DNA of 64,000 nt from the NCBI GenBank assembly GCA_003151275.1, contig PLXC01000159.1, positions 178,760-242,759 on the forward strand, given 5' to 3'. This document shows, piece after piece, positions 39,250 to 44,715 of the stretch. Under the pieces are notes generated by a model. That model saw only the letters and a list, made by a program, of their open reading frames with translations. It was not told the DNA's origin and did not search any database. The position numbers were made by a program, and so were the translations under genes. Within the stretch, counting starts at the first letter, position 1. Each line of letters opens with the position of its first letter. Source of the stretch: Candidatus Melainabacteria bacterium (GTDB lineage: Bacteria > Cyanobacteriota > Vampirovibrionia > Obscuribacterales > Obscuribacteraceae).

Positions 39250-42096
39250 ATGTTATCGAAGTGGCGGCTGGCGCTTAGCTTGCAATTTTTTATCGCGTCC
39301 TCACTATCCGCGGGGACCTACGCGGCTGAGAATGTATCGCTCGGGACGGTAGCTTCATCCCAAAGCCTGGATTCGAAGATATCGGGCTCTAGCTCCTCCC
39401 AGAACATGGAATCGAAGGTATCGGACTCTACCTCCCCAGAATCCATAACACTCCCTGTCGATCGCACCCACCTGAGTCGCAAAGCTAGTAACACGCTAAA
39501 TTCATCGCGTGGCTCGTCCTTTATAAGCCAATCGATTCTTCCAGCATCGCCCCAAGAAGCTAAAACAGATCAAAAAGGGAAAGGTTCGATTGTTGGAAAA
39601 ATCACGGATGAGACTCTAAACCATCCAGTGACAGAAGCTCGTGTCGTGCTGTCAAAAGTCGGTGAAGAGCACAAAAGATACCAAACCGAGACAGGACCTG
39701 ACGGGACTTACAAATTTGAGCACATCGAGGATGGAGAATATTCGATCACTGTGTCGGCAAAGGATTTGCTTTCCGGTAACCAAAGCATCAAACTCGCCAA
39801 TGGAGAAGTTCGAAATTTAGATTTCAAACTTGAAGATATCGAGCCGGTGGATGTCCTACGAATCAGCGGCAAACAGACTCTGATTCATCCGGAAAAAATT
39901 GGCAGCACCACTAATCTCGATCACAAATTTGTCTATCAATACAAAACAGGAAATGATCTCCGCGACTTAATAACCAGCACTCCAGGTGTGATGAATGACA
40001 GCTATGGAAACATCATCACCCGTGGTGAGCACAACTCGATAAATTACATAGTAGATGACGTTGTAATCCCAGAAGCGGCAGGCGTCCTACAGCAGTCACA
40101 AGTAATCAATCCACGATCCATTCAGTCAATGAGTGTCGACATTGGTGGATATCAAGCCAGCGATGGTGGCGGACCGTTGGGTGCAGTCGCGCACATCAAG
40201 TCTTTGCCTATCAATAGCAAACCGAATTTCAATATTGGCCAGCAAATAGGTGGTCCGCTCGCAGGCAGCATTTTCTACAACTCAAGCGGCGCCTTTAGTC
40301 AACGACCGGATAGCATCTGGAACCGGCTTCGCTTCGAATCATCGGGCTCTTTTAGAGGGTCGTCTTACGGCATAGCTCCTCCGGTGAAGGACTATGTGCA
40401 GAACGGCCGGGCCGACATCAACTCCTTTACCAAATTGGAGTTTTTAGCGACACCGCGAGACACATTCAGGCTAACAACATCCATCAATGAAACATCTTTC
40501 CAGGTGCCTACATCTGGACGTTCTGCCACAGCCGGCGTTAAAGATCACCAACACGATGGACAGGATTACATCATTGCTAGTTACATCCACAAATTCGAAA
40601 AGTATCTTGACGAAGTCAATTTGCACCTGCTCAACGGTATTTACTATGACCGATTTCGCAGCACTAAGGCGTTCGATCCCGGGGTTCAATTCAACAATGG
40701 ACAACCGCAAGAATCAATTTCTGCAAACGCGAAACGAATCAATTATGTGTTTTCTGCACAGGGAAATGTTCTAAAAACCTACAATAAAACTCATCACTTC
40801 AAAGCTGGCTTCTACTCTGAAGTGCGCCCTGTTAGCACACTCTACAACGCAACTTACTACAACGCGGATTACCTGGGCAGCGTCCCTTCGGCGACGAACC
40901 CGAATCCTACTCCATACGGTGCCGTAATCAGTCCGTTTACAGGTCAGGCAGGCGGTCCAGGCTTCGACGGAAAAGTAGGAAGGTTTTCTGGATTTAGATA
41001 TTTGCAAAGCGCATTTTTCCAAGACAAATTTACGCCTCAAAATGGGTTTTGGCGCCGGTTGACTCTGGATGCGGGTTTGCGCTTTGACATGCAGAGAAGT
41101 ATTTACGGCAATACTATGACATTGGCGCAAACGATCTTGAACACTCCTGGATCGTCACCGTTCTCGCTCCAGCCGTACCAGAAGCAAACGACTACTGATG
41201 CTCAAGTTAGCGGAAGATACGGCGCCGCCTTTGTTCTGGATAAGAAAACTGTTTATCGGGCATCATTTTCTAATTTATTTATGCCGAATCCGGTGGATAT
41301 TTTTGTCACTCCGTACAACGTGGTGAGCGGACAAAATACACCTGGAATTTATGACGGAACACCCAAACCATTGCGCGCAACTCGTGGCTACTTAATTGAT
41401 AGCAGCATAGAGCGCCAGTTTGGTACCCGCTTTGCATGGCGCACAAATCTGTTTTATAAATACCTCACGAATTTCGGGGACTCTGGAGTTGTTGGCAATC
41501 TGCCTCTTTATAATCGCCTTACGAATAGCGCCCAGGATGCAAGCGGCGTCGAAACAAGATTAGACCTGAAGCCCAAGCGAGATGGTTATGGCTTTAACGG
41601 ATTTGTATCCAATACTATGCAAGTGGCATTCTTGCGCGGAACGAGGACGCCATCCGGTGGTTTCTATCAGACGCCTATTCCTCCTTTCATGAAATATCCA
41701 GATCACGACAGGCGAATGTCCACAGTTGCTGGGGTGGGATACAAGACACCGCAAAACATTTGGTGCCTTTTGACTACACAGGTGCTCAGTGGACTACAAG
41801 ATGAGCGCGATCCAGCTATTTATGGACCACATCTTAAACGCACTCCGTTTATAACCGATGTGGCTTTCAATGCTGGTTATCAAATGCCCCATAAGCTAGT
41901 TCAAGCTCATCGCTGGCTACCAACTTCATTTGATGTTCGTTGTAGTAATTTACTAAATCAGCGTCTGCCAATTAATTTGGGCAGCCCCTTCCAAGGAACT
42001 AGATTTAGCCTGCCGCTTCGAGTTTTGGCAAGTTGCCAGTGGCAGCTGGGGCCACAGGAGGCGAAGTTAAGTGGCGCCCCGAAGCCACAGTTGTAG
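39250..42096 (+). CDS. TonB-dependent outer-membrane receptor with carboxypeptidase-regulatory-like domain
   Basis: 948 residues. A signal peptide (about 1-25) and a Ser-rich spacer are followed by a carboxypeptidase-regulatory-like beta-sandwich at about 110-200 (GSIVGKITDETLNHPVTEAR). A plug domain follows at about 225-320 (DLRDLITSTPGV, IITRGEHNSINYIVDD, SVDIGGYQASDGGG) and then a long beta-barrel. No crisp TonB box is visible. The beta-sandwich plus plug is the Oar/SusC-like type, used for large substrates such as peptides or glycans; the ligand is not known. Energy could come from the TonB-like protein at 789. The palindrome at 39160 is a regulatory candidate. Confidence 0.88.
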   Translation: MLSKWRLALSLQFFIASSLSAGTYAAENVSLGTVASSQSLDSKISGSSSSQNMESKVSDSTSPESITLPVDRTHLSRKASNTLNSSRGSSFISQSILPASPQEAKTDQKGKGSIVGKITDETLNHPVTEARVVLSKVGEEHKRYQTETGPDGTYKFEHIEDGEYSITVSAKDLLSGNQSIKLANGEVRNLDFKLEDIEPVDVLRISGKQTLIHPEKIGSTTNLDHKFVYQYKTGNDLRDLITSTPGVMNDSYGNIITRGEHNSINYIVDDVVIPEAAGVLQQSQVINPRSIQSMSVDIGGYQASDGGGPLGAVAHIKSLPINSKPNFNIGQQIGGPLAGSIFYNSSGAFSQRPDSIWNRLRFESSGSFRGSSYGIAPPVKDYVQNGRADINSFTKLEFLATPRDTFRLTTSINETSFQVPTSGRSATAGVKDHQHDGQDYIIASYIHKFEKYLDEVNLHLLNGIYYDRFRSTKAFDPGVQFNNGQPQESISANAKRINYVFSAQGNVLKTYNKTHHFKAGFYSEVRPVSTLYNATYYNADYLGSVPSATNPNPTPYGAVISPFTGQAGGPGFDGKVGRFSGFRYLQSAFFQDKFTPQNGFWRRLTLDAGLRFDMQRSIYGNTMTLAQTILNTPGSSPFSLQPYQKQTTTDAQVSGRYGAAFVLDKKTVYRASFSNLFMPNPVDIFVTPYNVVSGQNTPGIYDGTPKPLRATRGYLIDSSIERQFGTRFAWRTNLFYKYLTNFGDSGVVGNLPLYNRLTNSAQDASGVETRLDLKPKRDGYGFNGFVSNTMQVAFLRGTRTPSGGFYQTPIPPFMKYPDHDRRMSTVAGVGYKTPQNIWCLLTTQVLSGLQDERDPAIYGPHLKRTPFITDVAFNAGYQMPHKLVQAHRWLPTSFDVRCSNLLNQRLPINLGSPFQGTRFSLPLRVLASCQWQLGPQEAKLSGAPKPQL

Positions 42097-42791: not shown

Positions 42792-43068
42792 AAAAGACAC
42801 CCAACTGGTATCCTTATTCCCTATGATATTGCGGTAGATCGCTTGATCCTCTACCCACATCGTTTGTCAAAACTCCGGGCAGAGACCACCGTATAGTGTA
42901 GATGATGGGCAGATTATTAGGCACGGCTGCTGATTCCACTATAAGTCCGACCAAAGTAGTATCATTTGCTCAAAAAATGAAAACCTTGCTACTGACCAAG
43001 ATATGGTTCGATTGTTGAATAAGCTAAGTTTTGTCCGATTTCTCTGCTTTGTGTGAGGTGTTGTCTCT

Positions 43069-44715
43069 ATGCGAAAAGATCTATGCGTTTTTGCTCTCCT
43101 ACTCTCATTCATTGCGAGCAACAATCAGCCTGCCCGAGCCGACGTGGACTGGAAGAGCTATAAAGAAGGGGTCTATCAGGCAAAATACACAAAGCGGCCG
43201 ATTTTTGTGATGCTTACAGAAGATCATTGAGGGTTTTGCGCCAAACTGGAGCGTGAAACTCTGGTCGATCCGCAAGTACAGCAATATCTGAAAGAGTTCA
43301 TACCGATACAAGTCAATTACGATCGTGGTGACGAAGAGAAGCAGATATATAAAAAATTAAACGGTGCCGGCTTTCCGACCTTAGTATTTCTGGACGCAAA
43401 CGCAAATGTTGTTCATCAGTTTGCTGGTTACAGAACGCCTGATGCCTTTGTACAACAATGCAAAGTAGCAATGAACGCGGTTAGGACAGGAAAATTGTTA
43501 GAGCAAAAGCCAATTGTTTCGACGCTCGGTTCCCCACCGACAATGGCCACGCAATCGGTTCGGACTTACCAAAATCGTCCTGGTGCGATGCAACGGTCCG
43601 CAATTTCGCCCAATACAGGTAATCCCAATCCTAACCTTCAATTGATCGGCTCTTTTGCAAACCGTAGTGCCGCTCCCGTCATAAACACAGGAAGAGGATC
43701 CGTTTTGCTCGCAATTAAATCTGAATTTAACATGGTTCAGCAAAGACAGGAAGGATTCGATCTATTCATAATCCAGAATGGGCGCTGTTTTCCATACTAT
43801 TCACGTCCGGCGCGCGACATCAAATCTGCAACTAGCGATAACTACGGCAATATTTATTTTGCGGCTGGCAATGAAATATTTCGTCTCGCAAGCGGAAGGG
43901 AATCAAAGATCTACACATCGGCATCACAGAGGATCGACTGCCTAAAATCGAACTCCCGGGGTGAGCTCTTCTTCAGCTCTGGTGCAGTCGGGTCTGTCGG
44001 CGTTGGTGTGATCTACAAGCTGGCAGGTAGTGAGCCGAAGGCGGTGGTGAGGATAGAGCCTTCAACGGTAGATGGATTTTGGTGCGGACAGTTTGCTATC
44101 GATCCTCAAGACAACATTTGGTTGAGCAGTGGAATTGAAATGAACGGGAACATATACAAACTCATAAATGGCAAACCTGTGAAGATTTACAATGATCCAT
44201 TTGGATGCCCGGTGGGCTTCGATTTTGAGCGCAATGGAAACTTGATTTTTGCGAACGATGACGAAAAACTGTACAGACTGTCTTGGACCCAAAAAGGTAT
44301 TTTGGCGCAGAATTTGTTCACATTTACCAATTCGCCCCCCAATCCGCAGATTCTTCCTCGCTTCTGGGACGTCTCGGTTTACAAGGCAGTCGGCAATTCA
44401 TCTAAGGCAGTGGTGAACGAACATGCCGTAGTAGTGAATGAACATGTCAAAGCGCAGCTCCTTCCAGCTCATCCGACTGGCACCGTATGTGATGGCATAC
44501 TGAAATCCGAGCGTGAACACGTGCTGTTACGCATAGAGCAGTTCGGGAAGATGGGAGTTGGTATAAGTCCATTCACGGCATTATTTAATACAATGGAAAC
44601 TCTAGTACCTCGCGGTGATGAAAAACTGATTCAAGAACAATTGAAACGTCTATCGGACAGCTTAGACGAGCAAGACAAAGCAACCAAAGAATGGCAATCT
44701 CGTTCAGTAAATTAG
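43069..44715 (+). CDS. Candidate exported selenoprotein: thioredoxin-like domain (Sec-Gly-Phe-Cys) plus propeller-like domain
   Basis: One frame of 548 residues runs from the ATG at 43069 (GAGG ten bases upstream) to the TAG at 44715, broken only by TGA at 43228-43230, codon 54. Residues 1-24 are a signal peptide and 25-145 a thioredoxin-like domain: DWKSYKEGVYQAKY, the strand RPIFVMLTEDH, then TGA, then GFCAKLERETLVDPQVQQYL. The later strand ends in the cis-Pro motif GFPTLVFLD. The TGA falls exactly at the first Cys of a CGFC-type active site, giving Sec54-x-x-Cys57. Residues about 190-460 are strand-turn repeats with DNYGNIYFA, DPQDNIWLSSG and FERNGNLIFAND, an NHL/propeller-like domain. Expected role: periplasmic thiol-disulfide or peroxide reduction. 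A conventional call would begin at 43471 and lose the catalytic domain. Confidence 0.8.
43231..43261 (+). promoter_or_regulatory. Putative bacterial SECIS stem-loop of selenoprotein candidate 2
   Basis: Immediately after the TGA, GGGTTTTGCGC (43231-43241) pairs with GCGTGAAACTC (43251-43261) over 11 positions, three of them G-U, around a nine-base loop (43242-43250). Position directly 3' of the UGA, in-frame, and stem size agree with bacterial SECIS elements read by SelB. Confidence 0.6.

What the first reader, a model, noticed from the sequence alone, without database searches (positions are those of the whole stretch)
43069..44715. Exported thioredoxin-like selenoprotein with Sec-x-x-Cys site and a propeller-like domain
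The sequence shows a single frame broken only by TGA at codon 54, precisely where thioredoxin-like proteins have the first Cys of CxxC. The residues after it are GFC then a typical Trx helix, and cis-Pro (GFPT) is present. An 11-position stem-loop starts right after the TGA. Other genes in the window use TGA as stop, so the code is standard. From knowledge of bacterial selenoproteins, UxxC thioredoxin-like proteins exist, but fusion to an NHL-like domain in this lineage is not one I know.
Basis: partly seen in the sequence, partly recalled or inferred. Interest (0 to 1): 0.95.

Follow-up and report, generated by a model that had tools for sequence, protein, structure and literature searches.

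The report
Selenocysteine thioredoxin fused to a propeller
A gene from an Obscuribacterales bacterium (a relative of cyanobacteria) has an in-frame TGA exactly where most related thioredoxin-like proteins have their first catalytic cysteine; the TGA is predicted to be read as selenocysteine, which would give an exported redox enzyme fused to a predicted beta-propeller, in a lineage hardly known for using selenocysteine.

Summary
In detail: frame 43069-44715 is open except for TGA 43228-43230 (codon 54), and a thioredoxin domain spans it. The window belongs to Obscuribacterales; its nearest held relative (78-89% DNA identity over 17 kb) has SelA, SelB, SelD and tRNA-Sec(UCA). In the order I found five more thioredoxin-like genes with one TGA at exactly this Cys position, in genomes that all have SelA and tRNA-Sec; the tree needs four Cys/Sec changes, three forced. 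A hairpin of bacterial-SECIS geometry follows the TGA in 6 of 6 TGA genes, each stronger than in all 46 Cys/Ser homologues. The propeller rests on a moderate-confidence model. No other protein with the whole architecture was found. Best reading: a genuine exported UxxC selenoprotein, a new variant of a known kind. Not shown: selenium in the protein, or Sec genes in the window's own genome (none held).

The parts
43069..44715 (+). Whole reading frame, 548 residues with Sec at codon 54 (predicted selenoprotein)
43055..43060 (+). GAGGTG, possible Shine-Dalgarno, 8 nt before the ATG
   Evidence: sequence
43069..43140 (+). Signal-peptide-like N-terminus, residues 1-24 (judged by eye, no predictor run)
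   Evidence: translation
43147..43455 (+). Thioredoxin-like domain, residues 27-129
   Evidence: Pfam; nearest solved structures are DsbD C-terminal domains
43228..43230 (+). TGA, predicted Sec54, position of the first Cys of CxxC
43237..43239 (+). TGC, Cys57, second residue of the UxxC pair
   Evidence: invariant in alignment A3
43375..43377 (+). Pro103 of GFPT, cis-Pro position of thioredoxin folds
   Evidence: invariant in alignment A3
43245..43265 (+). Candidate SECIS hairpin: 7 bp stem, 7-nt loop CGTGAAA, loop starts 21 nt after the TGA
43230..43262 (+).
43702..44322 (+). Predicted beta-propeller, residues 212-418
   Evidence: fold model, Foldseek, relatives
44482..44697 (+). Helical module (residues 472-543) found in many other proteins of the family
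43471..44715 (+). The 414-aa ORF that a standard gene caller takes (P0002), which leaves out the Trx domain

Best explanation
The gene carries one in-frame TGA at the first catalytic cysteine position of a thioredoxin-like domain, and this TGA is likely read as selenocysteine, which would make the product an exported Sec-x-x-Cys thiol-disulfide oxidoreductase joined to a predicted beta-propeller. Inferred mechanism: SelB with Sec-tRNA(UCA) binds a SECIS hairpin whose loop starts 21 nt downstream, once the ribosome has melted the competing hairpin next to the UGA; the signal peptide is removed on export; Sec54 attacks a substrate disulfide and Cys57 resolves it, as in the C-terminal domain of DsbD; the propeller would bind or position the substrate or partner outside the cytoplasm. 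Shown: the frame, the position of the TGA, the domain, recurrence of TGA at this site in homologues, and Sec machinery in close relatives. Inferred: Sec insertion, export, redox activity and the propeller's role.
For: Trx domain across the TGA and coding score on both sides. TGA at the first Cys of CxxC, where 45 of 52 aligned rows have Cys. Five further genes with one TGA at that exact site, in genomes that all have SelA (5 of 5) and tRNA-Sec (ARAGORN). G001, the nearest relative, has SelA, SelB, SelD, tRNA-Sec. SECIS-geometry hairpin in 6 of 6 TGA genes at -4.5 to -5.8 kcal/mol against a best of -4.1 in 46 Cys/Ser homologues. In three orthologous TGA genes dN is below dS after the TGA in all three pairs.
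Against: The window's own genome is not held, so its Sec genes are untested. No orthologue of the whole protein was found, so selection on this very gene cannot be measured, and its Trx domain sits on a long branch. For the window alone, 70 of 1000 synonymous shuffles give as good a hairpin, and the hairpin alone (-5.2 to -5.9) does not reach the published -7.5 limit. A stronger competing hairpin exists. No formate dehydrogenase or SelD hit with a TGA supports Sec use independently.
Confidence: 0.88

Rival explanations
1. A pseudogene: a nonsense mutation turned the first active-site Cys codon into TGA, and only the part after it, or nothing, is made.
For: TGC or TGT to TGA is a one-base change; no orthologue shows constraint on this gene; its Trx branch is long; some gene callers give the 414-aa remainder.
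Against: No other stop or frameshift in 548 codons; coding score kept on both sides; the same site carries TGA, not TAA or TAG, in five other genes of genomes with SelA and tRNA-Sec; SECIS-geometry hairpin.
Confidence: 0.06
2. A sequencing or assembly error changed TGC or TGT to TGA.
For: Raw reads could not be seen.
Against: The 414-aa remainder is listed on 4 contigs and no full-length version was found (whether the contigs come from independent reads is unknown); the same state recurs in five other genes.
Confidence: 0.03
3. TGA is read as an ordinary amino acid such as Trp (recoded genetic code or suppressor).
For: The frame is open with any residue at the TGA.
Against: 6 of 18 long ORFs in the window end in TGA; the position is the redox Cys; Sec machinery is present in relatives.
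Confidence: 0.02
4. Two separate genes: a 53-residue exported peptide and a propeller protein that starts at 43471.
For: ATG 43471 opens a 414-aa ORF.
Against: The Trx domain needs both sides of the TGA; 80 coding-like codons between the TGA and 43471 hold no ATG, GTG or TTG.
Confidence: 0.01

Closest known systems
Thiol:disulfide interchange protein selenoproteins (PF13098, UxxC), listed as predicted with high confidence in PMC13188914 (table passages seen)
   Same: Pfam family PF13098 and UxxC motif
   Different: No propeller is mentioned (word 'propeller' absent from that text); the sequences were not compared here
Trx7/PDZ domain-containing (seleno)protein, NF041199
   Same: A Thioredoxin_7-type domain with another domain in one (seleno)protein
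   Different: 15.9 bits against a cut-off of 300; PDZ instead of a propeller
Rhodanese/DsbD fusion-like selenoprotein TsoB, NF045694
   Same: Best-scoring NCBIfam model; its C-terminal DsbD-like part matches residues 13-131
   Different: 42.3 bits against a cut-off of 805; no rhodanese part here
C-terminal domain of DsbD (PDB 1uc7, 2fwe)
   Same: Nearest solved structures by sequence (7e-8, residues 42-113); exported thiol-disulfide exchange
   Different: Cys instead of Sec, and part of a membrane protein
Virginiamycin B lyase / NHL beta-propellers
   Same: Best Foldseek match of the model (2z2n, E 1.5e-7)
   Different: 15% identity; no catalytic residues compared; no Pfam propeller family over cut-off
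The one Sec-containing protein of a Candidatus Melainabacteria proteome (PWT95605.1) reported in PMC9529120 (passages seen)
   Same: Earlier report of a Sec protein in the wider group
   Different: Its function is not given in the passage and its sequence was not compared here

Membership tests
Bacterial selenoproteins | In-frame TGA with coding sequence of one domain on both sides | tested here: met
Bacterial selenoproteins | Homologues with Cys at the TGA position | tested here: met
   45 of 52 aligned rows Cys, 6 TGA, 1 Ser
Bacterial selenoproteins | SECIS geometry: loop 3-9 nt, stem 4-16 bp, G in first two loop bases, 16-37 nt from UGA | tested here: met
   loop 7 nt, stem 7 bp, G second, 21 nt
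Bacterial selenoproteins | SECIS energy at or below -7.5 kcal/mol | tested here: inconclusive
   Hairpin alone -5.2 to -5.9 does not reach it; the section read does not say which stretch is folded
Bacterial selenoproteins | SelA, SelB, SelD and tRNA-Sec in the same genome | not testable with these tools
   No genome held; all four present in the nearest relative G001
Bacterial selenoproteins | Selenium in the protein | not testable with these tools
   Needs experiment
Thioredoxin-like superfamily (PF13098/PF13899) | Score over the curated Pfam cut-off | tested here: met
   54.4 and 51.8 bits against 27
Named Trx-like (seleno)protein models of NCBIfam (TsoB, trx7_PDZ_seleno, VPGUxxT type 2) | Score over the curated cut-off | tested here: not met
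   42.3/805, 15.9/300, 19.5/275 bits; works like them, not filed as one
DsbD / DsbH reductases | Score over the curated cut-off | tested here: not met
   36.4/330 and 40.4/190 bits
Beta-propellers (NHL / virginiamycin B lyase type) | Propeller fold of the C-terminal part | tested here: met
   Predicted model, mean pLDDT 66, pTM 0.58; Foldseek E 1.5e-7 to 2z2n, target TM-scores up to 0.56 in the top 50; prediction only
Beta-propellers (NHL / virginiamycin B lyase type) | Sequence match over a Pfam propeller cut-off | tested here: not met
   Reg_prop 12.5 bits against 20.4

The most novel reading that the evidence does not exclude
Obscuribacterales are a selenocysteine-using branch beside the cyanobacteria in which Sec entered exported thioredoxin-like proteins again and again (four changes on the tree, three of them forced), and this gene is the first selenoprotein built as a UxxC thioredoxin carried by a beta-propeller: a Sec redox enzyme that works outside the cytoplasm on a partner chosen by the propeller.
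Probability: 0.6. Interest if true: 0.72.

Novelty: new variant of a known kind. Interest (0 to 1): 0.62.

Why it matters
Two papers state that Sec use was not detected in Cyanobacteria (PMC1794560, PMC9312934; passages seen). The neighbouring Obscuribacterales hold the machinery in most family genomes searched (SelA 35, SelB 37, tRNA-Sec 39 of 50), and no listed formate dehydrogenase hit there has a TGA, although PMC1794560 ties the Sec trait to Sec formate dehydrogenase. The group offers a case in which repeated change between Cys and Sec in one protein family can be followed, a new domain pairing, and a gene class that standard annotation cuts short (here to 414 aa without the active site).

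Tried and rejected
The DNA-pattern search for the whole protein found no relative in genome contigs. Rows with stops: G046 (L115) proved to be an ordinary gene end with a Cys active site; in G010 (L117) the site is Cys and the stops come after the domain; in G044 the TGA is the Sec site and the TAA the gene end. Those in G047, G045, G002 and G013 were not read one by one; the first three show no stop in the domain search, and G013's place is not in that list. Formate dehydrogenase as independent sign of Sec use: no TGA in any listed hit, one TAA, none over the cut-off. SelD hits over the cut-off have no stop inside. The first tree wrongly carried a Ser paralogue in the TGA group; it was repeated with right labels and without six long-branch Cys rows. 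SelB was not searched in G051-G053. No signal-peptide predictor was run.

Paper searches for prior art: selenoprotein+Melainabacteria (3 papers, irrelevant by title), UxxC+thioredoxin-like+metagenom (2 reviews, both used), Obscuribacter+selenocysteine, Vampirovibrion+selenocysteine, Cyanobacteriota+selenoprotein+SelB, selenoprotein+thioredoxin+beta-propeller (4 papers, irrelevant by title), Cyanobacteria+selenocysteine utilization (19 papers, 10 listed), non-photosynthetic cyanobacteria+selenocysteine, Melainabacteria+selenocysteine (5 papers; PMC9529120 relevant, passages seen). PMC5029168 (passages) mentions only orphan SelD in Prochlorococcus; PMC12013277 holds none of the terms looked for. 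The library lacks most subscription papers.

Full report
OBSERVATION. The frame 43069-44715 (+) is open for 548 codons apart from TGA 43228-43230 at codon 54. With the TGA read as Cys, Pfam Thioredoxin_2 and Thioredoxin_7 match across it (residues 27-129 together). Codon-usage scores favour this frame on both sides: 0.086 for residues 1-53, 0.120 for 55-134, 0.088 for 135-548, against an in-frame mean of 0.146 (5-95%: 0.018 to 0.269) and an out-of-frame mean of -0.064 for 53-codon pieces of the window. Of eight in-frame stops in the window with at least 40 codons open before and 120 after, only this one is followed by a long start-less coding-like stretch (80 codons). TGA is also an ordinary stop here: 18 long ORFs end in TAG 7, TGA 6, TAA 5.

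LINEAGE. No whole genome is held for the window. The window's aminotransferase has its nearest relatives in Candidatus Obscuribacterales and Melainabacteria records. Locus L001 (Melainabacteria palsa_1080, genome G001) is 98% identical in that protein and 78-89% identical in DNA over about 17 kb in the same gene order, 85% or more in three of five blocks. NCBI taxonomy places Obscuribacterales in Candidatus Melainabacteria, within the Cyanobacteriota/Melainabacteria group.

SEC MACHINERY. G001 has SelA (533 bits, cut-off 268), SelB (305 bits, cut-off 242), SelD (365 bits, cut-off 125) and tRNA-Sec with anticodon TCA. Over the cut-offs in the 50 held genomes of its family: SelA 35, SelB 37, tRNA-Sec 39; in the 53 of its order: SelD 45. 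The tRNA-Sec model passes its cut-off in 5 of 14 control genomes too, so ARAGORN was used as a second test on nine distinct loci: all nine give tRNA-SeC with TCA. The misses may be losses or incomplete assemblies; completeness was not told.

RECURRENCE. I searched the order (53 genomes) and the class (382 genomes) with the thioredoxin domain. Both lists were cut by the tool; the rows listed hold five genes with an in-frame stop, and each has exactly one TGA: G044 (L116, WUGPC), G027 (L164, WUGWC), and G051, G052, G053 (L200-L202, TULQC). In all five the TGA lies at the position of codon 54. All five genomes have SelA over cut-off and tRNA-Sec. Over 52 distinct aligned rows from loci I held, the codon is TGC or TGT in 45, TGA in 6 (the window included), TCC in 1, and TAA or TAG in none (88 hits reduced by removing duplicates, short flanks and rows with no residue there, and one spurious minus-strand window row dropped; the set is enriched for TGA because I fetched those loci on purpose). 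The three orthologues L200-L202 keep the TGA while dN stays below dS after it (0.057/0.374, 0.041/0.097, 0.046/0.374). On a tree of 47 domains the TGA label needs four changes, three forced by well-supported branches (six long-branch Cys rows left out; gains and losses are counted alike). Since most rows have Cys, the likely direction is Cys to Sec.

SECIS. Published rules (PMC13188914, section 5 read whole): loop 3-9 nt, stem 4-16 bp, G in the first two loop bases, 16-37 nt from the UGA, energy at or below -7.5; the same section says that some genes fail the model. With the geometric rules and unbroken stems the six TGA genes score -5.8, -5.5, -5.2 (window), -4.5, -4.5 and -4.5 kcal/mol; the best of 46 Cys or Ser homologues is -4.1, their mean -0.8, and 30 have none (Mann-Whitney p 6e-6; three of the six TGA genes are close relatives). 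Distances from the TGA to the loop are 21 nt (window), 22 in four genes and 16 in one. Against synonymous reshuffling, which holds the protein fixed, 70 of 1000 shuffles are as good for the window, 59 for L116, 67 for L164, 23 for L200, 6 for L201, 5 for L202: the window alone is not significant, the set is suggestive, and the Cys comparison is the stronger test. None of the hairpins alone reaches -7.5. The hairpin at 43245-43265 would then be free to form; this order of events is inference.

ARCHITECTURE AND FUNCTION. Residues 1-24 look like a signal peptide (by eye). The closest solved structures of the Trx domain are DsbD C-terminal domains (E 7e-8), so an exported disulfide reductase or isomerase is the best guess. 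Residues 180-548 were modelled with 19 relatives (mean pLDDT 66, pTM 0.58; 76-91 in the blocks for residues 250-419). Foldseek gives 478 PDB matches at E 0.001 or less, led by virginiamycin B lyase, with NHL domains among the top 50. By sequence, the propeller's relatives are mostly caspase-domain proteins from metagenomes; none listed carries a Trx domain together with it. Residues 472-543 form a helical module seen in many other proteins of the family, for instance in the middle of a 563-aa protein in L112, so the fusion looks at home in this lineage. The whole protein has no other member among the hits or in the 50 family genomes, G001 included.

NOVELTY. UxxC in PF13098 proteins is a listed selenoprotein kind, and a Trx7/PDZ (seleno)protein is curated in NCBIfam, so the kind is known. 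New here, as far as my searches go, are the propeller fusion and the repeated use of Sec in Trx-like proteins of Obscuribacterales. One Sec protein in a Candidatus Melainabacteria proteome was reported in 2022 (PMC9529120, passages), so Sec in the wider group is not new.

Noticed in passing
L116:1321-1752; L164:1379-1828; L200:1521-1949; L201:1487-1918; L202:1515-1940 (minus): Five further thioredoxin-like genes with one TGA at the first active-site Cys, in five Obscuribacterales genomes (G044, G027, G051-G053).
   Followed up: yes
L164:1830-2324: Directly after the UxxC gene of G027 lies a paralogue whose active-site position reads Ser (TCC) and has lost the CxxC pair.
   Followed up: partly
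50 family genomes: Most of the family keeps SelA, SelB and tRNA-Sec, yet UxxC thioredoxins appear in only two of these 50 genomes and no listed formate dehydrogenase hit has a TGA; the main selenoproteins of the lineage are still to be found.
   Followed up: no
window 44482-44697; L112:1510-1704 (minus): A helical module of about 70 residues without a Pfam match recurs in many proteins of the family, at the end or in the middle.
   Followed up: partly
window 39250-42096: A 948-aa protein with a carboxypeptidase-regulatory domain and a TonB-plug match just below its cut-off lies upstream on the same strand.
   Followed up: no
P0003-P0009, P0134, P0136-P0139, P0141, P0142: The same propeller type is fused to a caspase domain (often with a CHAT match) in metagenome proteins.
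   Followed up: no
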